Source: a virus
IMG/VR virus record: IMGVR_UViG_3300046542_000178
Coordinates: 1-38,266 of that record
Direction: 5' to 3' (one strand)
Length of the DNA stretch: 38,266 nucleotides
Shown here: in pieces, positions 1,206-26,552 of the stretch
Layout of the letters: each line of letters starts with the position of its first letter
Position numbering within the stretch: position 1 is the first letter of the stretch
The notes under the pieces: generated by a model
What the model saw: only the letters and a program-made list of their open reading frames with translations
The model's database searches: none
Told to the model about the DNA's origin: nothing
Program-made: the position numbers and the translations under genes

Positions 1206-3713
1206 TTACATTTTGCAGCCACCAACCCCACAATCAGCTTCTGGGAGCTTGTCGGTGTTACGCACTTCAACCATCACGATCTCACCGTTACTCATTTCTT
1301 TGGCTTCGGTGGTCAGGGTGTTGTAGTAGTAACGAGACTTGAACCCGTACTTGGTCATGCGGAAGAAACCAGTCAGCAGTTCAGTCGAACCCACGGTTTC
1401 GCCTTGTGGTAAACGACGCCACAGGTCAGCCGACATCCCTTGATCGCACCAGTACTGACCCACTGCGTAGCTGTCGATCTGATCGTCTGCTGGAACGTCC
1501 CATGCGATCTCGTAACGATCACCCCACAGGTCGCCTTCAGGTGCAGCCCAACGCGATACGATACCGTTGTCGGTCTTGGTCATCACCAAGTCACGTACAG
1601 GGTAACGACCGTTTGGTTGACCAGCAGCTTTGGAGCTGGACTCACCCGGCATGTGGGAGTTGACGCAGGAGAAGCGCATGCCTTCGTTGTCGATCAAGTC
1701 TTGACGCACTGGAGCCCAATCACGAGCAGGACCCACAGTGACCAAGCCGAGGACGTTCTGGTTAGCGCTGTCTTGCGGCAGGTAACCTTCTGGCCAAGCG
1801 GTACGGTGCATCCATTCAGCATTGCCACGCTCTTTGCCCAACTTGATCGACTGAGTGATCAGGTGGTACATGTGCGTTTCGTCGAGGTGGAACAGAGCGT
1901 TCTTGCCTTCTTGACTGCTGTACTTGTAATTGTTCTTGGCCATCCAGGTAGCAACACCCATCAGACCCACACCAGCGTTCATACGAGACTTCGAGGTAAA
2001 CCCGATGTGTGGCAGTTCGTATTCGGCCTTGTGAATGCAGATGTCGATCATCAGCAAAGTGTAGTAAGCAACTTCTGCCCACTGCTCGTCGCTTTCGATG
2101 TTCGCTGGAACCACACCACCGATGTTACACATAGCCACTTCTGGCTCGTGCTTGATCTCGTCGATACTGGCGACATGGTAAGTCAGACCGTCTTTAACCG
2201 TACGGAACGCTTCACCCGGTTGCAGTTCGATCGCAGCGATGGCCTTACGACCCTGACGCCCGAGGATCAGTGGATTCTGCGGTACACGTTCTACCCAGAC
2301 CTTCTGCGGTGCATCCAGTTGGATACGGTCACCGGTAGCAGTGGTCAGTTTGATGTAACCCACAGCCGACGTGGAGTACAGATCCATCATGTGGCGATAA
2401 CCACGCTGAGGCAGCATGATCTCTTGACACAGGTTGGAAGCGAAGATCGAATCGTAGAACGGGGTGTGACGATTCATCTCGTCAGCCCAGGTCAGGTAGT
2501 AACGACCGGTTTCCAGAGCTTCAGTCAGAGCGACCAACACCAGCTCACGAGCGTTGAAGTAATCCTTGACGAACAGAGGATCAGCTTCGTACTTAGCGTA
2601 CAGCTCTTCGAACTTGGTGAAGTCTGCCGAGTAGAAGGCTTCGTAGAGGTCAGGAGCCGTGAAGCAGTTGAACTTGAACAGCTTACCCTTAGCACCAGCG
2701 AAGCGAGCGATGAACTTGCTCACAGTGACTGAGTAGTCGATACCACGGATCTGCTTCTCTTCCACCGACATCGGGTTCTGGAGTTGCAGGAGGGTTTCGT
2801 TTTCAGGATCGAACATGCTGTAGGTCAGCGTGTCAGCACCACCACGACCGTTTTGCAGGTTGGCCTCAACCATCGCCTTGGTAGCGCGGACGTATGGGAG
2901 TTTGCCTTGGTGCTTGATCATGCCACCACGAACAGCGTCACCCAGCGAGCGAGTGTTCAGGTGAGTACCACAACCTGCCGACATGTAGGTCATGGTGTAA
3001 GCAATGTGTAGGCCGATGCCGATCGAGGCAGCGGTGTCTTCGTTGCTGTAAATGCAGCAAGAAGCGAAACCACGCAACGGAGTACCGAGGTTGACGTAGT
3101 TTGGAGTCGGGGCATTGATGCGAGCGTCCGACAAGTGCTCGTAGAACTTGGCAACGTCATTCATACGACGTTCACGCGGCTGCTCTTCAGAGAGAGCCAT
3201 GGCCATACGCATGTACACGAACTGTGGAGTCTCGTAGACCTTGCGTTCTGCACCGATACGATTTTGCAGAGCGTACTTCTTGTAGATGTACTCGCTGCGG
3301 AAATGCGGGTAAGTCTGATCTTTCTTGTGCTGGATCAGCTTCTCTACCTCGGCGTATTCAGCCTCGGAGTAGTCCAGCTTGTACATATAGCCTTTCTCGG
3401 CCAGTTGTAGGTGAAGCTCACGTACCGTCGGTACAGACTGACCGAAGGTCTTTTTCGCAATGAGCGGGGCATACAGTTTACCTGCCATCAGGTAGTGTGC
3501 CCACGACTCGCCACGCAGGGTGACGTCAATCAGCTTCTCTTGGAAGTCTTGAGTACTCAGTACCGGAGGACATTCATTAACTGCATCGAGGAGGATACTG
3601 GCCCAGTCCACGCGATTACCGAGTTTGCGACCTGCCCACTGACCCCACTTCTTGGCCTTCTCGGCAATGAAGGGTTCGCTTGTTCCGTCAAACTTGATCA
3701 TCTCTTTAATCAT
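1206..3713 (-). CDS. nrdA: Ribonucleotide reductase class Ia large subunit
   Basis: Catalytic alpha subunit reducing ribonucleoside diphosphates; 835 residues, in the range of full-length class I alpha chains. An N-terminal ATP-cone-like region (about residues 1-90) suggests allosteric control of activity. The catalytic residues are visible: first redox Cys in FASCCIYS (C219), the N-x-C-x-E motif SNLCQEIMLP (N427, C429, E431), the second redox Cys in VAMCNIGG, the Tyr pair in KSRYYYNT for radical transfer, and the C-terminal swinging cysteines in CGVGGCKM (C828, C833). The ATG at 3713 has AAGG about 9 bases upstream. nrdB follows on the same strand. Gene and family are clear; no inactivating change is seen. 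Confidence 0.96.
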   Translation of the reverse strand: MIKEMIKFDGTSEPFIAEKAKKWGQWAGRKLGNRVDWASILLDAVNECPPVLSTQDFQEKLIDVTLRGESWAHYLMAGKLYAPLIAKKTFGQSVPTVRELHLQLAEKGYMYKLDYSEAEYAEVEKLIQHKKDQTYPHFRSEYIYKKYALQNRIGAERKVYETPQFVYMRMAMALSEEQPRERRMNDVAKFYEHLSDARINAPTPNYVNLGTPLRGFASCCIYSNEDTAASIGIGLHIAYTMTYMSAGCGTHLNTRSLGDAVRGGMIKHQGKLPYVRATKAMVEANLQNGRGGADTLTYSMFDPENETLLQLQNPMSVEEKQIRGIDYSVTVSKFIARFAGAKGKLFKFNCFTAPDLYEAFYSADFTKFEELYAKYEADPLFVKDYFNARELVLVALTEALETGRYYLTWADEMNRHTPFYDSIFASNLCQEIMLPQRGYRHMMDLYSTSAVGYIKLTTATGDRIQLDAPQKVWVERVPQNPLILGRQGRKAIAAIELQPGEAFRTVKDGLTYHVASIDEIKHEPEVAMCNIGGVVPANIESDEQWAEVAYYTLLMIDICIHKAEYELPHIGFTSKSRMNAGVGLMGVATWMAKNNYKYSSQEGKNALFHLDETHMYHLITQSIKLGKERGNAEWMHRTAWPEGYLPQDSANQNVLGLVTVGPARDWAPVRQDLIDNEGMRFSCVNSHMPGESSSKAAGQPNGRYPVRDLVMTKTDNGIVSRWAAPEGDLWGDRYEIAWDVPADDQIDSYAVGQYWCDQGMSADLWRRLPQGETVGSTELLTGFFRMTKYGFKSRYYYNTLTTEAKEMSNGEIVMVEVRNTDKLPEADCGVGGCKM

Positions 3714-3869
3714 GACTCAAACCTTAAAATTGGCTACTAACAGGGGACAGTAATTAGTCCGTGACTATAACATTAGGTTCCAAAATTGTCTGTGTAAAAC
3801 AATCCCCAAAACCAACATAGGGTACTCTGCGTATGTAAGTAAACACTCCCTCGAACCAACTAGATTTCA

Positions 3870-3890
3870 AGTATATATTACCTAAGGGCA
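3870..3890 (+). promoter_or_regulatory. phiKZ-type early promoter box TATATTAC
   Basis: TATATTAC at 3874-3881, followed by CTAAGG, 39 bases before the next start codon and in the spacer between divergent genes. TATATTAC is the early promoter consensus reported for phiKZ, read by the virion RNA polymerase. A second copy with the same downstream CTA lies at 14267. Assignment is by motif only. Confidence 0.7.
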
Positions 3891-3919
3891 ATACTAACCT
3901 AAACGATCTGAGGAGATCC

Positions 3920-4657
3920 ATGATGAAGAATCCAAAGAAACGCCACCTTAAGAAAGCTCTTAAAGAATTGACGAAGCGGACTGCCGCAACTGTGCAGCTT
4001 CTCCCCACGAACCACTTTAAGACTGCGAGTCGTCTGGGGATGTTACCTACCCTGACCAGTACGACACCGCTAACCAGTCAAGAAGCTTACGATGTCCTGT
4101 ACGCTGGGTATGACGCAGAGTTTAACTCGACCATGGGTAAGACTCTACCGTTGGGTGAAGGTCACTTCGGGGTGAATCCACCTTCCACTCCTGAAGAGCG
4201 TGCTGAACGGTTCCGTCGTTCGATGCCTGAAGGTTACAACAAACAAGAAGATGCTCGTGGACATGAGGCGGCACTGCGTCGCCCTAACCCTATTGAAGGT
4301 GAAACTCAAGTACTTCCTGAAGGAGCTGTCTTGACCACCGAATACGGTACTCGACCAAACCCTCTGCGTGAACACTGGGAGAAGTATGGGGATCAATCGG
4401 ACCTTCGTCCTGTACCCGATGTCAATGTTGATGCTCTTTTGGATAAAAGCGCTAATCCTGAGCTGATGCAGCGTATCGTAGAACGCATGTCCCAAGACAT
4501 TCTGCCTCTTGGTTTGAGTGATCCTGGTCGGGCTAAGGATCGGGACTTCACCAAGTTGGCCGTCAAAGCTACCCCTGAACAGGTGGCTGAGATGGGTAAG
4601 GACATGAAGCTCATCTTCAAGGACGGCAAGGTGGTTGATCCTGAGGAGGACAAGTAA
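3920..4657 (+). CDS. Hypothetical early protein, 245 aa
   Basis: Not recognised. The first 25 residues are very basic (Lys/Arg-rich) and the rest is hydrophilic with many Pro, Glu and Arg, without membrane segments or a signal peptide. The ATG at 3920 has GAGGAG 5-6 bases upstream; a second ATG follows directly. It is the first gene behind an early promoter box, so it is probably made soon after infection. Its stop overlaps the next start (TAATG), suggesting translational coupling. The basic N-terminus might bind nucleic acid, but that is only a guess. Confidence 0.8.
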   Translation: MMKNPKKRHLKKALKELTKRTAATVQLLPTNHFKTASRLGMLPTLTSTTPLTSQEAYDVLYAGYDAEFNSTMGKTLPLGEGHFGVNPPSTPEERAERFRRSMPEGYNKQEDARGHEAALRRPNPIEGETQVLPEGAVLTTEYGTRPNPLREHWEKYGDQSDLRPVPDVNVDALLDKSANPELMQRIVERMSQDILPLGLSDPGRAKDRDFTKLAVKATPEQVAEMGKDMKLIFKDGKVVDPEEDK

Positions 4658-17660: not shown

Positions 17661-19844
17661 ATGTCACTTCTGAAATACAAAGGCTCCGCTGGCAGCGCTC
17701 TGGCTAACGTGGTTTCCGCCCTTCGCCAAACCGTCGCCACTCAAGGTAGCGAATTCGCTTCCAAGAACCACACCAGCAACCTGATCTCGATGGAAAGCCT
17801 GGACGAAGCCGGCCACGCTGAGCTGTCCCGCGTTGCTATCGACCTGTCCCACGAAATCAAAACCGCATTCCAAGCTCTGCGTCCTTCGATGGAAGACGGC
17901 GAAGACGGTGCTGACGCCCTGACCGACGTACAACTGGAAGCTGGTGCTATCGCTGCCATGGCCGCAGGCGACCCTGCTGGTTACGCCGACGTAGCTCTGC
18001 GTTCCCAAGCCACCGGCGACAACGTTGTTGACATCGGTTCGAGCGGCGCTGCTGGTTCGGTTGACACTCGCGAAACTCCTTCCCTGGAATCCTTCGACGA
18101 ACGTGAACTGGCCAAGTTCCTGCCTTACTCCATCGCGTTCAACGTGAAGGCGTCGGTTCAGGACAGCTTCAGCGAAATGTTCTACCCTACTACCGTTGTT
18201 CCGCCAGAACAAGGCGGCCTGGACATCACCGTTCGTCGCACCCTGGTGCACAACGCCATCCAGCACAGCAACACCGGTAAGGCCACCAACTGGAATCGTA
18301 AGAACCTGGTTGACGCGGCAATGGACCACACCATCCTGGCTGACGAGAGCACTGCTCTGGTTCCAGTGGTTCTGGCCAACGGCGACAACGCTTCGATGTT
18401 CATCCCAGAAGCTCTGCTGGCCCGTGAAGTTCGCCTGATCTCCGGCGTTTCCGTGACCACCGCTCCTCTGGCGATCAACCAGGAACTGAACCTCCTGGGT
18501 CTGTCCCAGCACCCTGGCCTGATCGGCGCTGGTGTGATCGATCACACTGACGCAATCGACAACAGCATCGGCCTGGACAAGATCTACATCCAGATCGACG
18601 CCGCTGGTCCTGATACCGACCTGGTTGACGTGGTTGCTTTCACCACTCGTCGCCTGGCTCGTTCGAACTTCGTCAAATCGGTTGAAGGTGCTAACCGTGA
18701 GATGAACCTGAACTTCAAAACCGCTGACCTGGTTTTGGATGCCAACACCAAGAACGTTGCTGGCGCTACCCCTGACGTCCTGAGCGGCGTTGTTTCGGGT
18801 GAACTGACCGTTCGTCTGGCTGTTAACGTTAACGGCGAGTTCGACACTCAGCTGGGTAACGGTCGCGTTTACAGCTCGCCTGTAACCGTAGACAGCATCG
18901 TCAACAAAGACGGCGTTGAAATCTCCCTGACCGCTGGTGCCGGTGCTGCTATCGTTACCGCTCTGGGCGGTTCGAAAGTAATCGCTTACGAGCTGAAAGC
19001 TGCTCGTACCAACAGTAACCGTCGTACTCGCGGCCTGCTGCTGGACACCAACGATCGCACCTTCCGTTTCCACATCCCACTGGGCGCTCCGATCTCGGCT
19101 CCTTCGCCAGCCGGTAGCAACCGTGATGCACGTGACCTGGAAGCACTGATCAGCGCTGCTCGCGTTCGTAACACCAACAACGCCGTAACCCGCCTGCTGA
19201 ACTACGCAGAAACCCTGCGTGCTTACGCTGGTTCGGTTAAGCGTAACGACACCATTCCAGAAGTGGAAGGCGTCGGTCGTTTCCTGGTCAAGCCTTTCTT
19301 CGAAGAGAAAGAAATCGACCTGGAAACTCAGGTATCGTCGATCCGTGACATGGACCGTGCAGAAGACATCAACGCCATCCTGGTTAACGCCATCCGTGAC
19401 GTGTCGTACCGCATGTACCGTGACTCGGGCTACCAGCCAGCTCTGAACGCCGCCGTTGGTGGTTCTCAGCAGCCGAAACTGCTGATCGGTACCGACGTAG
19501 TTCTTCAGCGTCACCTGATGGTCGTTGGCGACAGCCGCACCTTCGGTATCGCGTTCCCTGAGTACCAAATCGAATCTTCGTTCGACGCCCGTATGAAGGA
19601 CACCATCGTCATCGCCCTGACCCGTACCGGTCAAGTCGAAGGCATCGACCCGCTCACCTTCGGCGTTCACGCCTGGATTCCTGAGCTGGCTTCGAGCATG
19701 ATGGTTCAGCGCGACGGCGGCACCTACCCAGAAGCAATGGTGCAACCACGTAACCTCCAGATCAACCACCTGCCGATGATGGCTATCATCAAGGTCAAAG
19801 GCCTGGAAAAAGTACTGACCCATCAGGTTCCAAACACCCTGTAA
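17661..19844 (+). CDS. Major capsid protein (phiKZ gp120-like)
   Basis: Forms the icosahedral head lattice. At 727 residues it is close to the phiKZ capsid protein (about 747). Codons are strongly restricted (CTG, CGT/CGC, AAC, GGC), as in very highly expressed genes. Residues 1-143 are Ala/Glu/Asp-rich and look like a propeptide; S-L-E143 followed by SFDE fits the S/A/G-x-E sites of the phiKZ prohead protease, and a near copy, S-M-E45 then SLDE, lies earlier. After 143 comes a block, KFLPYSIAFNVKASVQDSF, with an IAFN-type segment typical of this capsid group. AAAGGA precedes the ATG. The coding bias leaves an equally long open frame on the opposite strand. Identity rests on length, bias, cleavage sites and gene order. 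Confidence 0.85.
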   Translation: MSLLKYKGSAGSALANVVSALRQTVATQGSEFASKNHTSNLISMESLDEAGHAELSRVAIDLSHEIKTAFQALRPSMEDGEDGADALTDVQLEAGAIAAMAAGDPAGYADVALRSQATGDNVVDIGSSGAAGSVDTRETPSLESFDERELAKFLPYSIAFNVKASVQDSFSEMFYPTTVVPPEQGGLDITVRRTLVHNAIQHSNTGKATNWNRKNLVDAAMDHTILADESTALVPVVLANGDNASMFIPEALLAREVRLISGVSVTTAPLAINQELNLLGLSQHPGLIGAGVIDHTDAIDNSIGLDKIYIQIDAAGPDTDLVDVVAFTTRRLARSNFVKSVEGANREMNLNFKTADLVLDANTKNVAGATPDVLSGVVSGELTVRLAVNVNGEFDTQLGNGRVYSSPVTVDSIVNKDGVEISLTAGAGAAIVTALGGSKVIAYELKAARTNSNRRTRGLLLDTNDRTFRFHIPLGAPISAPSPAGSNRDARDLEALISAARVRNTNNAVTRLLNYAETLRAYAGSVKRNDTIPEVEGVGRFLVKPFFEEKEIDLETQVSSIRDMDRAEDINAILVNAIRDVSYRMYRDSGYQPALNAAVGGSQQPKLLIGTDVVLQRHLMVVGDSRTFGIAFPEYQIESSFDARMKDTIVIALTRTGQVEGIDPLTFGVHAWIPELASSMMVQRDGGTYPEAMVQPRNLQINHLPMMAIIKVKGLEKVLTHQVPNTL

Positions 19845-19860: not shown

Positions 19861-19958
19861 CACTCCAAGGCTTAGCGGCCTTGGGGTGAGTCCTTTAAGT
19901 GGGGACACTGGAATCTACCGTGGCCGGTTGGGCTTCGGTAGATTCCTTTTATGCCGTC
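19861..19958 (+). terminator. Two hairpins after the capsid gene, the second followed by TTTTATGCCGTC
   Basis: First, CACTCCAAGGC pairs with GCCTTGGGGTG (19861-19888, 11 bp), followed by AGTCCTTT. Then GGAATCTACCG pairs with CGGTAGATTCC (19910-19946, 11 bp), followed at once by TTTTATGCCGTC. The double arrangement suits a strong stop after a very highly transcribed gene. Confidence 0.82.
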
Positions 19959-19990
19959 TGTGATTGAAAGCTATTTGAAACCTATGTCAG

Positions 19991-21163
19991 ATGAGTCAGT
20001 ACCTCCACAACAACCAACTCATTAACCGTGAAGCGCCGCTAGTTGAAGTGCCAAGCGTATTGGCCCTTGGACCCGGTTCCCAGCTTTCCATAGAGAAGGA
20101 GTTTTTCAACGGCTTTCGCAAGGCCGTTACTTTGGTTGATCGTACGGGTATGCCCTTAGTCATTCAGCCTATGAATGTCCGAGGTCTGAACAAGTTCGTG
20201 GTACGTTACACGATCAAGTATCGAGCCGGTGTAAATATTGACGTAGACCGACTATCCAATGCAACGTCTGAAGGAATGCGAGCACTGAGGGATGCAGTCC
20301 TTAGTGGGAGTGTTCAGCAGCGTATGGGCCAGTGCTTTGCCCAAGTGGATTATGGAGTAGATGAGGACGATGTACAACGTAATGGAGGCTCCCTTTACTT
20401 AGTCAACCTAGACCTCGTGGTTTCCACGATGGTTGGGGGTTATGTCCCGCATCATCCATTTAGTCAGGACGGCGTCCGTAATCGCCTAGTGGCCGATAAT
20501 GAAACCATTAACACAGCCGGAGTGGTGGGCTACAGTCTACAAATCGTTGACAACGAAGATATATTTGGTCCCCGATACATTAACATCAACAAGGAGATCT
20601 ACTTAGTCCAACCTGCCAAAGATCCCTCAAGACTCAGTGGCGTCTATCGCGCTTCGACTTGTCCGGTGAATGAGAGTGGTGGTGTTGGAAAACCTCGGGC
20701 TGACTACTTTGCCTTTCCTGAAGCTGAAGCTTTCCTTGGTATGTTTAAGTCATACGAAGAAGCACAGGTTATGGGTGACGTCGCTGCTGAGAAGAAACGA
20801 GAACTCGACACTCTGTCCCATGAGTTAAAAGCTCAGGAGCATCGCATGAAGAGCGAAAGGATGGAGAGAGAGCAGGAGTTTGAGGAATGGAGAAGAGATC
20901 TCGAGCAGAGACGCATAGCGGAGGAAAGTGAACGCAAGTCACAAGAGCACTGGTGGAAACTTGAGGAAGCCCGGATCAATGAAGCGACGGCCAGACTCAA
21001 GGAGGAACAAACTCGAGTGGAGCACCTGCGTGGTATCGCAGCACTTGAGCGAAAAGACCATTATGAAGAGCGAAGCTACGTACGGAAGGATGCTTCTGAG
21101 TTTCTTAAATGGGTTCCAGCCATTGCAACTGGTATTGCGGCTCTCTTTCTAGCATTTAAGTAG
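19991..21163 (+). CDS. Coiled-coil protein with C-terminal membrane anchor, 390 aa
   Basis: Family not recognised. Residues 1-240 form a globular, beta-rich domain. Residues about 255-365 are a long, heavily charged coiled coil (many Glu, Arg, Lys and Gln). The last 20 residues, FLKWVPAIATGIAALFLAFK, are one membrane helix, so the protein is tail-anchored with its bulk probably in the cytoplasm. The ATG at 19991 has no clear ribosome site, and another ATG at 19984 opens a 13-codon frame. It lies between the capsid protein and an RNA polymerase subunit. It could tether phage structures to the inner membrane, for example during head assembly; that is inference. Confidence 0.8.
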   Translation: MSQYLHNNQLINREAPLVEVPSVLALGPGSQLSIEKEFFNGFRKAVTLVDRTGMPLVIQPMNVRGLNKFVVRYTIKYRAGVNIDVDRLSNATSEGMRALRDAVLSGSVQQRMGQCFAQVDYGVDEDDVQRNGGSLYLVNLDLVVSTMVGGYVPHHPFSQDGVRNRLVADNETINTAGVVGYSLQIVDNEDIFGPRYININKEIYLVQPAKDPSRLSGVYRASTCPVNESGGVGKPRADYFAFPEAEAFLGMFKSYEEAQVMGDVAAEKKRELDTLSHELKAQEHRMKSERMEREQEFEEWRRDLEQRRIAEESERKSQEHWWKLEEARINEATARLKEEQTRVEHLRGIAALERKDHYEERSYVRKDASEFLKWVPAIATGIAALFLAFK

Positions 21164-21188: not shown

Positions 21189-22862
21189 ATGGATAATGAC
21201 TTCTTCAACCTGGTAGACCAACGCGCAATCCCTCGTTTCAATGACAAGATCATGTCCGGTCTTGCGGTTGAACAGATGCGCGGCGTAGAACGCTACGTTG
21301 ATGGTTTGTTCAGGAGTATCGCTAAAAGCTTCCCAGAGGGCTTGCGGTACGAAAACTGTAGACGCTGTACTCCACAGGAGGAGTTCAGTGAGATCACACC
21401 TAAACGTACCGGTAAGCCAGTGTTTGACATTGCGCGATCCGATCTGTTTCTGGTGGAATACAACTTCAGCTACACTGATCCCAAGACCGGGGTCAAGGAA
21501 CCTTTGCTGAAGCGCTACATGTATTTGCCCTTCGTCCGTCAAGCGGGGCTGATCACGATTCGCGGCAGTACATTCAGTATCAGTCCAGTTTTGGCTGATC
21601 GGGCTATTAGCTATGGGGTTAACACGATCTTCATTCCGTTGCAGGTGACCAAACTCACCTTCGAACGGTTGGACCATACGTTCAGTATCTACGACATTGC
21701 AGAAAATGGCGCGGAAACTTCGTGGAATGAAAATGCGAACGTGGCGTGGGCCACTGTTTACAATCGTAGCCCTGAGAAGGGAGCTAACTCGAAGAACCGC
21801 ATTACGGCCAAACACACCATGGCCCATTACTTGTTTAGCAAGTACGGTGTGACGCAAACGTTTAAAATGGTGTCGAACTCTGAAGTTCACGTGGGGTATC
21901 CTGACGAGATCAACTACGACATCTACCCGAAAGAGGAATGGGTGATCTGCGGTTCCAAGCAGATGTGTCCACGCACACTACGGGGCATTCGGCGGATTGG
22001 CTACACGGCTAGCAACTTACGGTTGGCTATCCGTCGTACCGCCTGGACTACCAAGAACGTGGGTTTGATTGCTGGCCTGTTCTACATTGTGGATCATTTC
22101 CCACAGCGTATCGAGCCAGAGTTTATCGATAGCACGCGTCTTTGGCGTATTCTGCTGGGTCACTTGATCTTTGGTTCGAACCAGAGTGAAGGTAAGTTGG
22201 CAGAAGAGGTCGAGAACCACATCGAATCCTTGGATGAGTCCTTGGATGAAAGATCGCGGTTGGACCTACGAAGTGAGAACATCCTGGTAAACGACGTGTA
22301 CGAGCTGTTTGCGTTTATCATTGGTGCTCTGTCTGAGATGGTGATTCAGTCTGACAACGTGGAGTCCACGATGTACGACAAAGAGTTGATGGTATTGCGT
22401 TACGCATTGTTCGACATCAACAAAGCCATTTCCCACTTCAAGTTTGCATTGCAGAAAGCAGCACGTAAGCCAAAGATCAAAGAGGAAATCAATCTGGCTC
22501 TCCGCCGGAACCTCACTTTGGATGCCATTACCAAGATCAACCGTCAACACGGTGAAGTGGCAGGTATCTCCAGTCCTGGTGATAACATGTACTTCAAGAT
22601 CACGTCTAACCTGGTTCCACAAACCAGCGCGACAGGTACTGGTCGTAACAGTGGCAAGTCGGCTGCGACCGATGCGTCTAAATTGCTTCACTCCTCCATC
22701 GTGGAAGTCGGTTCGTATAACAACCTGCCGAAAGCCAGCCCTGATGGTCGGACACGCATCGGTACCTGCGTGCAGTACGATTCGAACTATCGGGTTGTAC
22801 GAAGTGAGAAGTTCAGAGCGTTGATCGACGATGTTCAACGTAGAATCCAATACACCAAGTGA
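21189..22862 (+). CDS. RNA polymerase beta-like subunit, N-terminal half (phiKZ gp123-like)
   Basis: Probably part of the phage-encoded non-virion RNA polymerase that transcribes late genes. The block YLPFVRQAGLITIRGSTFSI and the residues after it (about 112-138) match the beta-subunit pattern PLMTxxGTFIINGxERV. Near the end, SYNNLPKASPDGRTRIGTCV (about 504-523) resembles the beta segment GRICPIETPEGPNIG. At 557 residues it covers only the N-terminal part of beta, as expected where beta is split into separate proteins in phiKZ-like phages; the C-terminal half is not in this window. Position two genes after the capsid gene agrees with phiKZ gp123. No catalytic Asp triad is expected here, since that sits in beta-prime. 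Confidence 0.72.
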   Translation: MDNDFFNLVDQRAIPRFNDKIMSGLAVEQMRGVERYVDGLFRSIAKSFPEGLRYENCRRCTPQEEFSEITPKRTGKPVFDIARSDLFLVEYNFSYTDPKTGVKEPLLKRYMYLPFVRQAGLITIRGSTFSISPVLADRAISYGVNTIFIPLQVTKLTFERLDHTFSIYDIAENGAETSWNENANVAWATVYNRSPEKGANSKNRITAKHTMAHYLFSKYGVTQTFKMVSNSEVHVGYPDEINYDIYPKEEWVICGSKQMCPRTLRGIRRIGYTASNLRLAIRRTAWTTKNVGLIAGLFYIVDHFPQRIEPEFIDSTRLWRILLGHLIFGSNQSEGKLAEEVENHIESLDESLDERSRLDLRSENILVNDVYELFAFIIGALSEMVIQSDNVESTMYDKELMVLRYALFDINKAISHFKFALQKAARKPKIKEEINLALRRNLTLDAITKINRQHGEVAGISSPGDNMYFKITSNLVPQTSATGTGRNSGKSAATDASKLLHSSIVEVGSYNNLPKASPDGRTRIGTCVQYDSNYRVVRSEKFRALIDDVQRRIQYTK

Positions 22863-22992: not shown

Positions 22993-25236
22993 ATGTTCAA
23001 CACCAACTTCGGCAACCAGCCCAACGTAAACAACCTGCCGGTCTCGGCGCAAGAGGTGAACCAGCAGTTCCACTGCCCCGGTGCTCCGTACCAGCTTCCC
23101 TTCAAGAACGCTTTCCCCGACATCGTTAACGGTTACGTGGTAAAGATGTTGCAAGACGGTGCGTTCAAGAACGCGCTGCGTGTGTTCCTGTTCAACATGG
23201 CTAGCCAGAACGGCTACCAGAATGAGCTGTACAACATGCTGGTGTCCTCGGCTACTCAGTTGGCCGAAGCTTTCGCAGCTACGACTCAGGGTAACTCGCA
23301 AGAGCAACTGGTTCTTAATGCTGCTAAAGAAGTCACCGACTGCGCTACGGCGATGATGGCTACTCAGTACCCAGTCCTTCAGCAAATGATGGGTCCAGGT
23401 ATTGAAGTGGAGCTGAACCGTTTGTTGGCTCGTCACCAAGACATCGGTCGTTTGGTGGCTTCGGTACAACAGCGTCAGCAACCACAACAAGCCTTCGGTG
23501 GGTTCCCTCAGCAACAGCAGCAGGGTTTCCCTCAGAGCAACTTCCCGCAACAAGGTAGCTTCGCCCAAGCGCAGTTCGGTGGTCGTGTAGCTCCACAGCC
23601 AGCAGCCAACCCTAACATCAACTGGGGTCGTTACGCTGGTACTGCTTCTTCGATCCAAGCCCAAAACACTTTCAACCCAGTTGAAGGTGGCTTCAAAGGT
23701 CGTGGTGGCTTGAGTGCCACGCCTGCTCTACCTGCTCCTGTCCAAGAACCAGTACAACAACCCGCAGCCTCTACAAATACCTTCGGTACCCAATGGGGTG
23801 GACGTAGCAGCACCGACTGGCCAAAGCGCGCTACTGCGCCTGGTAATCCAGCTGGTGTGGTTGAAGAAATGTTTCAAGATATGGGGAACCCCACCATGCC
23901 AATCGAAAATGCCCAACAACGTGCGTTCGCTGAAAGTCTGGCTCGGCAGCAACAGCAGCAACCAGCCAAGCCTACTCCGGAACCGTACATCGAACCGGAA
24001 CCAGTGGCTACGCAAAGCCCTAACGGCGTTGCCAACCATGACACCATCGACGAATCCCGTCCGTATGATGTTGTGAAGCTGGACAATGGCGTTGAAATCC
24101 GTCCTGCTCACCTGAGCGGCTGGACTCGTACCTGGTCGATCGAAAGCCCATGGCCTATGGCATTCGATCCTAACACTCACATGAAGTTCCACGTTCGTAC
24201 CCCACAGGCCGACGGCACCTTCACTGTGAAGGAAGTTGTCAAGGCAATCAGCCCGCAGGAAATGGAACAAATGGAATACCTGAAGCACGAAATCAAGAAC
24301 CGCGTTCCGTATGTACTGGACCCGACCAAAGTAGTCATGCCAGTAGACTGGGAAGAAGTGGCTACGTTGGACGCACCGCAAGTAACCCTGGTTGACGATG
24401 GGGATTCGATCCCTGTGGAGAACCCAGAAGTGAAGATCATTCCGGACGAGCTGGTTGCACACTCGTTCGAAGAAGCTGAGATCAAATACCTCAACGAAGT
24501 GATCGAGGTCGGATCTGAGAACTTCGACGGCAAGGTGCGTGAGTACTACTACCGTAACGTGAAGCCAGTCAACGTTGATGGCAACATGATCGGTGTCATG
24601 ATCGAACTGTCCAAGAAACAAACCCTCAGCGCTGTGGCCAAGTTCCTGCGTGAACACCACGAGAATGAGGAAATCACTCCTCGTCTGTACAACCTCCTGG
24701 TTAAGGACCTGACTGCACGCGTAAACGAAGCCCTGAGCGTCAACCTGGGTTACGGTAAGCGTTGCCTGATCGATGACTTCGTGCTGGACATCGACGATCT
24801 GGGTAACGAGCTGCACAAAGACGCCATGGGTCTGCTGTGGTCGTTGCTGAACACCGAACGTGCGTCGGACATCCTCAACTCTGTAACCAACATCCTCAAA
24901 GGTGAGGAGTACTGGGAGTACCTGAACAAGCTGGGTCACAACCTGAACAAGGAGCACAAAGGCGAAGTCATGCAAGTGCTGGCTCGTTATGAGCTGAACT
25001 CTGTGACTCACCTACCGTGGACGCTGGAGCTGTACGCTACTGACGAAGTGCAAACTCTGAAGGCTAGCGAAAACCCTGCGGTCCACAAAGCGATGATCGC
25101 CCTGTTGGCACGTACTGGCAAGAAAGCTACCAAGTTCTCTCGCCACTACATTGTTGACGTGAACCACCGTGTACTGGAAATCATGCCTGGTTACCTGGGT
25201 TCGAATTCCGTACTGATCCGCGCTGCACAGCTGTAA
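22993..25236 (+). CDS. Q-rich three-part protein, 747 aa, probably virion or assembly
   Basis: Not recognised. Three parts are visible: a helical N-terminal domain (about 1-157), a long disordered linker (158-345) rich in Gln, Pro, Ala and Gly with repeated FPQQ/FPQ steps near 170-187, and a C-terminal acidic alpha/beta domain (about 355-747). Codon bias is strong, though less so than in the capsid gene, implying abundant product. GGAGC lies 7 bases before the ATG. The place between capsid, RNA polymerase and portal genes suggests a head or assembly protein. A scaffold or inner-head protein is possible but unproven. Confidence 0.82.
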   Translation: MFNTNFGNQPNVNNLPVSAQEVNQQFHCPGAPYQLPFKNAFPDIVNGYVVKMLQDGAFKNALRVFLFNMASQNGYQNELYNMLVSSATQLAEAFAATTQGNSQEQLVLNAAKEVTDCATAMMATQYPVLQQMMGPGIEVELNRLLARHQDIGRLVASVQQRQQPQQAFGGFPQQQQQGFPQSNFPQQGSFAQAQFGGRVAPQPAANPNINWGRYAGTASSIQAQNTFNPVEGGFKGRGGLSATPALPAPVQEPVQQPAASTNTFGTQWGGRSSTDWPKRATAPGNPAGVVEEMFQDMGNPTMPIENAQQRAFAESLARQQQQQPAKPTPEPYIEPEPVATQSPNGVANHDTIDESRPYDVVKLDNGVEIRPAHLSGWTRTWSIESPWPMAFDPNTHMKFHVRTPQADGTFTVKEVVKAISPQEMEQMEYLKHEIKNRVPYVLDPTKVVMPVDWEEVATLDAPQVTLVDDGDSIPVENPEVKIIPDELVAHSFEEAEIKYLNEVIEVGSENFDGKVREYYYRNVKPVNVDGNMIGVMIELSKKQTLSAVAKFLREHHENEEITPRLYNLLVKDLTARVNEALSVNLGYGKRCLIDDFVLDIDDLGNELHKDAMGLLWSLLNTERASDILNSVTNILKGEEYWEYLNKLGHNLNKEHKGEVMQVLARYELNSVTHLPWTLELYATDEVQTLKASENPAVHKAMIALLARTGKKATKFSRHYIVDVNHRVLEIMPGYLGSNSVLIRAAQL

Positions 25237-25293: not shown

Positions 25294-25581
25294 ATGGACC
25301 GCTATCGGCGTCATGACTACGTCAAAGTCATGAAATGTAAAAGCATGTTGCTGGGTCATCCCGTGTTGAGCAACAGTACTAGATTCATCACCGTGGCCTT
25401 TGACTTCTACCCGCGAGCACAAGACTACGAGCGTTTTGAAGCTGAAGGGTGGGTAGTGCACGGACACCTAGGACACAACGACTTGTGTCTGAACATCAAC
25501 AACCGTAAGTTCTTTGAAGTAACCTTTCGCCGTTTAGTGTCCCAGGTCAAAGGCGCTGTTCCTGTACCAATCGAATACTAA
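25294..25581 (+). CDS. Small hypothetical protein, 95 aa
   Basis: Not recognised. Basic, soluble and aromatic-rich, with HGHLGHND in the second half that might bind metal. AGGGA lies 5-6 bases before the ATG. It starts a run of three small genes between the Q-rich protein and the portal. Confidence 0.68.
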   Translation: MDRYRRHDYVKVMKCKSMLLGHPVLSNSTRFITVAFDFYPRAQDYERFEAEGWVVHGHLGHNDLCLNINNRKFFEVTFRRLVSQVKGAVPVPIEY

Positions 25582-26496: not shown

Positions 26497-26552
26497 GCGG
26501 CATAAAAAAGAGAGGCTTTTACCCCTCTCTTTTTTTTGGCTTTTATGCCGTC
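26497..26552. terminator. Bidirectional terminator flanked on both sides by TTTTATGCCG
   Basis: AAGAGAGG and CCTCTCTT pair around an 8-base loop. On the plus strand eight T, then GGC and TTTTATGCCGTC follow; on the minus strand TTTTTTATGCCGCC follows. The hairpin serves the two convergent genes ending at 26493 and 26553. The string pointing outward on each side is the clearest example of the element. Confidence 0.88.

What the first reader, a model, noticed from the sequence alone, without database searches (positions are those of the whole stretch)
19991..21163. Tail-anchored coiled-coil protein between capsid and RNA polymerase genes
A globular domain, a charged coiled coil of about 110 residues and one C-terminal membrane helix form a tether-like design. 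phiKZ-like heads assemble at the inner membrane before docking at the phage nucleus; a membrane-anchored late protein next to the capsid gene could provide the attachment. No family is recognised.
Basis: inference. Interest (0 to 1): 0.6.

Follow-up and report, generated by a model that had tools for sequence, protein, structure and literature searches.

The report
Early tail-anchored jumbo-phage core protein
Next to the capsid gene of a nucleus-forming giant phage lies a gene for a protein with a folded head, a long charged helix and a membrane tail; it is the local version of an uncharacterised core gene of this phage family (phiKZ gene 122) that carries early rather than late expression signals, so it is more likely a membrane platform for the first minutes of infection than a capsid anchor.

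Summary
The 390-codon ORF at 19991-21163 is real and has the described layout: beta-rich head (about residues 25-262), long charged helix, C-terminal hydrophobic helix. "No family" is wrong: it matches phrog_7727/7286 and the phiKZ gp122 family, listed in the literature as an uncharacterised Chimalliviridae core gene. The order DnaB-like / gp119-like / capsid / this gene / nvRNAP gp123 / gp124 is conserved. A C-terminal hydrophobic helix occurs in nearly all homologues, though charged residues break it in phiKZ, 201phi2-1 and PhiPA3. The coiled coil is not demonstrated; the charged spacer varies from 38 to 171 residues. The "late" premise fails: an intrinsic terminator follows the capsid gene, and 54 of 63 homologue loci carry the virion-RNAP early-promoter motif (TATATTAY-N6-G) before this gene. 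It shares a unit with nvRNAP subunit gp123 (early in phiKZ) and gp124/JADA, which is early and localises to the early phage infection (EPI) vesicle. The profile is found in six chimallin phages tested and not convincingly in three msRNAP phages without chimallin. Best reading: an early tail-anchored platform on the inner membrane or EPI vesicle. A membrane initiator of prohead assembly remains a live rival. Unexpectedly, the window copy lacks the conserved early promoter and leader.

The parts
17661..19844 (+). Major capsid protein, phiKZ gp120 type (context)
   Evidence: PF25620 E 8.1e-213; phrog_3231
19910..19950 (+). Intrinsic terminator after the capsid gene: hairpin 19910-19946 with an outer 11-bp stem, then TTTT
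   Evidence: MFE -31.3 kcal/mol, z -4.7 against shuffles; terminator-like hairpin at the same place in 54 of 62 loci
19948..19955 (+). TTTATGCC motif in the terminator tail; contains TATG, the phiKZ nvRNAP late-promoter core
   Evidence: TTTATGY in 39 of 62 capsid-to-gene intervals, 3.5 expected; TATG from PMC4666361
19970..19990 (+). Place where close relatives carry TATATTAT-N6-G and about 60 further leader bases that the window lacks
   Evidence: alignment with seven relatives; motif score -0.3 here against 20-21 in the nearest relatives
19991..21163 (+). The gene: 390-aa gp122-family protein (phrog_7727/7286/15024)
20063..20776 (+). Beta-rich head domain, residues 25-262
   Evidence: AlphaFold2 mean pLDDT 88.4 when predicted alone; no confident match among solved structures
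20777..21106 (+). Charged helical spacer, residues 263-372
   Evidence: family length 38-171 residues
21107..21160 (+). Invariant K373, 16 uncharged residues, K390: predicted C-terminal membrane helix
   Evidence: K373 invariant among 57; uncharged run of 16 or 17 in 45 of 57 homologues
21189..22862 (+). nvRNAP beta-type subunit, phiKZ gp123 type, 25 bases downstream
   Evidence: phrog_2943 E 9.1e-160
22993..25236 (+). JADA / phiKZ gp124 homologue, same unit
   Evidence: PDB 9rp3 (Gp316/JADA) E 1.4e-14; phrog_15010
26504..26535 (+). Terminator-like hairpin at the probable end of the unit
   Evidence: 12 pairs; TTTATGCC on both sides

Best explanation
The gene encodes a chimallivirus core protein (phiKZ gp122 family) made in the first transcription wave. 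SHOWN BY SEQUENCE: conserved three-part layout ending in a short hydrophobic helix; a terminator after the capsid gene; an early-promoter motif before the gene in most homologues; a shared unit with nvRNAP subunit gp123 and, in most loci, gp124/JADA. INFERRED: vRNAP in the EPI vesicle transcribes the unit; the protein is inserted by its C-terminal helix into the inner membrane or the EPI-vesicle membrane derived from it; the helix acts as a stalk of adjustable length holding the head in the cytoplasm, where it docks early machinery. The first candidate cargo is JADA, reported diffuse without infection and at EPI vesicles after infection, then nvRNAP subunits or the nascent ChmA shell. In the phiKZ group, where the tail helix is interrupted by charges, attachment would be peripheral or lost.
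For: C-terminal hydrophobic helix in 63 of 65 non-redundant loci by score, and both exceptions are minor (L044 scores 1.20; for L068 the wrong ORF was picked); uncharged run of 16-17 residues after K373 in 45 of 57, low hydrophobic moment, rough insertion energy below 0 in 48 of 50. Early-promoter motif in 54 of 63 loci; 41 of 63 by a fixed pattern against 1.3 expected; early vRNAP promoters have an AT-rich element with the start 6 nt downstream (PMC5312081). Terminator after the capsid gene in 54 of 62. nvRNAP subunits are early products (PMC4666361, PMC10612078). JADA: early, essential, EPI-associated, directly downstream of nvRNAP (PMC12931631); window homologue; JADA-like ORF in 70 of 76 loci. 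Family found in Goslar, PhiPA3, phiKZ, SPN3US, 201phi2-1 and PCH45; none in AR9 or phiR1-37 and only a weak spacer-only match in PALS_2. PHIKZ122 is listed as core; its knockdown strongly alters phage transcription at 30 min with weak plaque and ChmA effects (PMC12571901).
Against: No localisation, fractionation or interaction data. The window itself lacks the early promoter. phiKZ, 201phi2-1 and PhiPA3 lack a clean membrane helix. The PHIKZ122 knockdown effect could be polar on gp123/gp124, which lie in the same unit. PhiPA3 gp138 is not in the top-25 proximity-labelling lists for ChmA or RecA at 45 min. The head domain has no confident structural relative that points to a ligand. The motif model was built from these same intervals, so it is not fully independent of them, although scoring was leave-one-out and the motif agrees with published early promoters.
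Confidence: 0.42

Rival explanations
1. Membrane initiator of head assembly: it works like T4 gp40, holding the portal or first shell on the inner membrane so that proheads assemble there, and is left behind on release. This is the defensible core of the first reader's idea.
For: Next to the capsid gene in nearly all loci. SPN3US proheads assemble on and stay anchored to the inner membrane without the prohead protease (PMC7411985), and SPN3US gp76 has a clean C-terminal helix. Homologue gp202 of 201phi2-1 is not annotated as a virion protein. T4 gene 40 is annotated as a membrane-associated initiator and lies between uvsX and gene 41, so grouping with DNA-metabolism genes is no bar.
Against: Terminator and early promoter cut it off from the capsid gene. 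No sequence relation to T4 gp40 (probability 0.3%). Weak plaque effect on PHIKZ122 knockdown while capsid knockdown is very effective.
Confidence: 0.22
2. Host-facing early membrane protein: superinfection exclusion, protection of the envelope, or remodelling of an inner-membrane complex.
For: Early expression signal and membrane tail.
Against: Conserved synteny and core status across phages of many hosts are unusual for exclusion genes; the head faces the cytoplasm if the N-terminus is inside.
Confidence: 0.13
3. Accessory of the nvRNAP: an assembly factor or retention anchor for gp123 until import into the phage nucleus.
For: Tight coupling with gp123 across loci; PHIKZ122 knockdown alters phage transcription at 30 min.
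Against: AR9 has an nvRNAP beta-N subunit without this neighbour; the knockdown effect may be polar. I know of no report of gp122 in purified nvRNAP (own knowledge).
Confidence: 0.13

Closest known systems
phiKZ gp122 family (PHIKZ122, 201phi2-1 gp202, PhiPA3 gp138, SPN3US gp76, Deimos-Minion gp1; phrog_7727, phrog_7286, phrog_15024)
   Same: Head-domain homology (phrog_7727 E 3.5e-49; phiKZ gp122 by profile comparison 96%, E 3.6e-9) and same gene order
   Different: phiKZ, 201phi2-1 and PhiPA3 have a tail helix interrupted by charges (phiKZ also a short spacer); the window has a long spacer and a clean helix, and lacks the early leader
T4 gp40, membrane-associated initiator of head vertex assembly
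   Same: Phage protein linked to the membrane and encoded outside the late cluster; proheads of both phage groups assemble on the inner membrane (PMC9958956, PMC7411985)
   Different: No sequence relation; 114 aa, no head-stalk-tail layout, no C-terminal hydrophobic helix
JADA (Pa36 gp316, phiKZ gp124; PDB 9RP3)
   Same: Encoded in the same early unit, two genes downstream
   Different: Different protein, purified as a soluble dimer; reported at EPI vesicles and as the trigger of Avs5 defence (PMC12931631)

Membership tests
phiKZ gp122 family | Head-domain sequence homology | tested here: met
phiKZ gp122 family | Position between the capsid gene and nvRNAP gp123 | tested here: met
phiKZ gp122 family | Early-promoter motif upstream (typical of relatives, not strictly defining) | tested here: inconclusive
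   absent from the window copy, present in 54 of 63 loci; the window's shorter leader may be a real deletion or an assembly error
Tail-anchored membrane proteins | Single hydrophobic segment close to the C-terminus and none of comparable strength earlier | tested here: met
   window: 1.76 at the C-terminus against 1.32 elsewhere; one residue after the 16-residue segment
Tail-anchored membrane proteins | Membrane insertion with the N-terminus in the cytoplasm | not testable with these tools
   both flanks are positively charged on average, so topology is not decided by sequence
Coiled-coil proteins | Heptad pattern | tested here: inconclusive
   no clear 3.5-residue periodicity; one confident long helix
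T4 gp40-type head initiators | Sequence homology to T4 gp40 | tested here: not met
   hhalign probability 0.3%
T4 gp40-type head initiators | Needed for prohead initiation on the membrane | not testable with these tools
   needs a mutant or knockdown with microscopy
EPI-vesicle-associated early proteins | Early (vRNAP) expression | tested here: inconclusive
   early motif in 54 of 63 loci, not in the window; no expression data found for the gene
EPI-vesicle-associated early proteins | Location at the EPI vesicle | not testable with these tools
   no localisation data found

The most novel reading that the evidence does not exclude
The gp122 family is a phage-encoded integral component of the EPI-vesicle membrane that recruits JADA, early nvRNAP or the first ChmA subunits, so it helps hand the genome from the vesicle to the phage nucleus.
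Probability: 0.25. Interest if true: 0.82.

Novelty: new member of a known kind. Interest (0 to 1): 0.52.

Why it matters
[quoted passage not shown] A core, early, membrane-tailed protein encoded with nvRNAP and JADA is a specific candidate for the first and an alternative candidate for the second, and the two are separable by timing and localisation in laboratory phages.

Tried and rejected
Pfam: no match above cut-off. PDB by sequence profile: nothing below E 0.7. Foldseek of the whole model and of the head alone: no E below 0.001; the best was RdgC at probability 0.14 or less, rejected. VIA-align rows to SPFH, vault and other long helices come from the stalk, and those for the head alone stay at Z 3.8 or below; rejected. 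Heptad-spaced indels: suggestive at loose clustering, gone after collapsing clades. Megablast to phages: none. An alignment-seeded scan with the family itself failed for lack of conserved stretches, so homologues were gathered through gp123. T4 gp40 homology rejected. The PALS_2 profile match (E 0.02) covers the spacer only and lies far from its RNAP gene; rejected. Whether gp122 is among the 21 chimallin-only genes of PMC10299810 could not be read (supplement not available here). gp122 in PMC11849849 is PhiPA3 gp122, an unrelated protein.

Full report
WHAT IS THERE. The ORF 19991-21163 is open, starts with ATG, encodes 390 residues and lies between a phiKZ-type major capsid gene and an nvRNAP beta-type gene. 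AlphaFold2 with 57 homologues gives a confident beta-rich head and one helix from 264 to 389, with low confidence around 361-367, before the tail helix. The C-terminal segment reads K-WVPAIATGIAALFLAF-K.

FAMILY AND SYNTENY. The protein matches phrog_7727, phrog_7286 and phrog_15024; the last contains phiKZ gp122, and profile comparison with gp122 gives 96% probability over the head. The order DnaB-like, gp119-like, capsid, this gene, gp123 recurs in FLC9, LucasX, PCH45, Eowyn, DT01, phiKZ, 201phi2-1, PhiPA3 and SPN3US, sometimes with extra small genes, and the capsid / this gene / gp123 core recurs in most of 80 IMG/VR loci gathered through gp123.

THE TAIL HELIX. 63 of 65 non-redundant loci score as having a hydrophobic C-terminal segment; one of the two exceptions is only slightly below the threshold and the other was a GIY-YIG ORF picked in error, the true gene lying upstream. 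In 45 of 57 aligned homologues exactly 16 or 17 uncharged residues follow the invariant K373. But in phiKZ, 201phi2-1 and PhiPA3 charges interrupt the segment, so data from phiKZ may not transfer.

THE SPACER. It is helical and about half charged or Q, from 38 to 171 residues. I found no heptad signal that survives controls; a coiled coil is possible, not shown.

EARLY, NOT LATE. A strong hairpin with a T tail ends the capsid unit in the window (z -4.7), and a similar one is found in 54 of 62 loci. Between it and the gene, 41 of 63 loci hold TA[TC]AT[TC]A[TC]-N6-G against 1.3 expected, and 54 of 63 score above 10 with a leave-one-out matrix. This agrees with published vRNAP promoters: an AT-rich element with the start 6 nt downstream (PMC5312081). 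nvRNAP subunits are early products (PMC4666361, PMC10612078). The third gene of the unit is a homologue of JADA (PDB 9rp3, E 1.4e-14), reported as early, essential and at EPI vesicles (PMC12931631). A JADA-like ORF follows gp123 in 70 of 76 loci with enough sequence.

AN ANOMALY. The window itself lacks this promoter: its leader is about 60 bases shorter than in seven close relatives. The junction was found in no IMG/VR contig, though the source record may be excluded from that search. It may be a real deletion or an assembly error. Early expression of this particular copy is therefore inferred from relatives only.

DISTRIBUTION. The profile finds the gene in six chimallin phages and not in AR9 or phiR1-37, with only a spurious spacer match in PALS_2, although gp123 is detectable in AR9 and PALS_2. 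Faster divergence could also explain this.

FUNCTION. PHIKZ122 is listed among core genes; knockdown had weak plaque and ChmA effects but a strong effect on phage transcription at 30 min, as did PHIKZ124 (PMC12571901). Polarity on gp123 cannot be excluded. The homologue in 201phi2-1 is not annotated as a virion protein while head neighbours are. I therefore favour an early membrane platform at the inner membrane or EPI vesicle (0.42). The gp40-like head initiator remains the main rival (0.22), because proheads of SPN3US sit on the inner membrane (PMC7411985) and T4 gene 40 also lies among DNA-metabolism genes, but there is no sequence relation.

VERDICT. The anatomy is right, the family is known but uncharacterised, the late capsid-tether story is not supported, and an early membrane role is the better-founded, directly testable alternative.

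Noticed in passing
window 19970-19990: The window lacks the early-promoter motif and about 60 leader bases present in seven close relatives; deletion or assembly error.
   Followed up: partly
window 12594, 13709, 15322(-), 19948, 26499(-), 26542, 36480(-), 37204(-): TTTATGCC directly follows predicted hairpins at eight of nine TTTATGCY sites (nine found, 1.3 expected); it contains TATG, the phiKZ late-promoter core, so terminator tail and late start may coincide.
   Followed up: partly
window 3874 and 14267: Two strong early-promoter-like sites TATATTAC-N6-G, before the ORFs at 3920 and 14279.
   Followed up: no
window 22993-25236: Homologue of JADA, the reported trigger of Avs5 anti-jumbo-phage defence.
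   Followed up: partly
L068:4110-4937: GIY-YIG homing-endonuclease-like ORF between the gp122-like gene (2828-4003) and gp123.
   Followed up: partly
L009:8709-9161, L099:4503-5021, L122:4734-5267: phiKZ, 201phi2-1 and PhiPA3 carry an extra small ORF (gp121/gp201/gp137) overlapping the start of gp122.
   Followed up: no
window 25147: Weaker early-promoter-like site (score 12.8) inside the end of the JADA-like gene, before the ORF at 25294.
   Followed up: no
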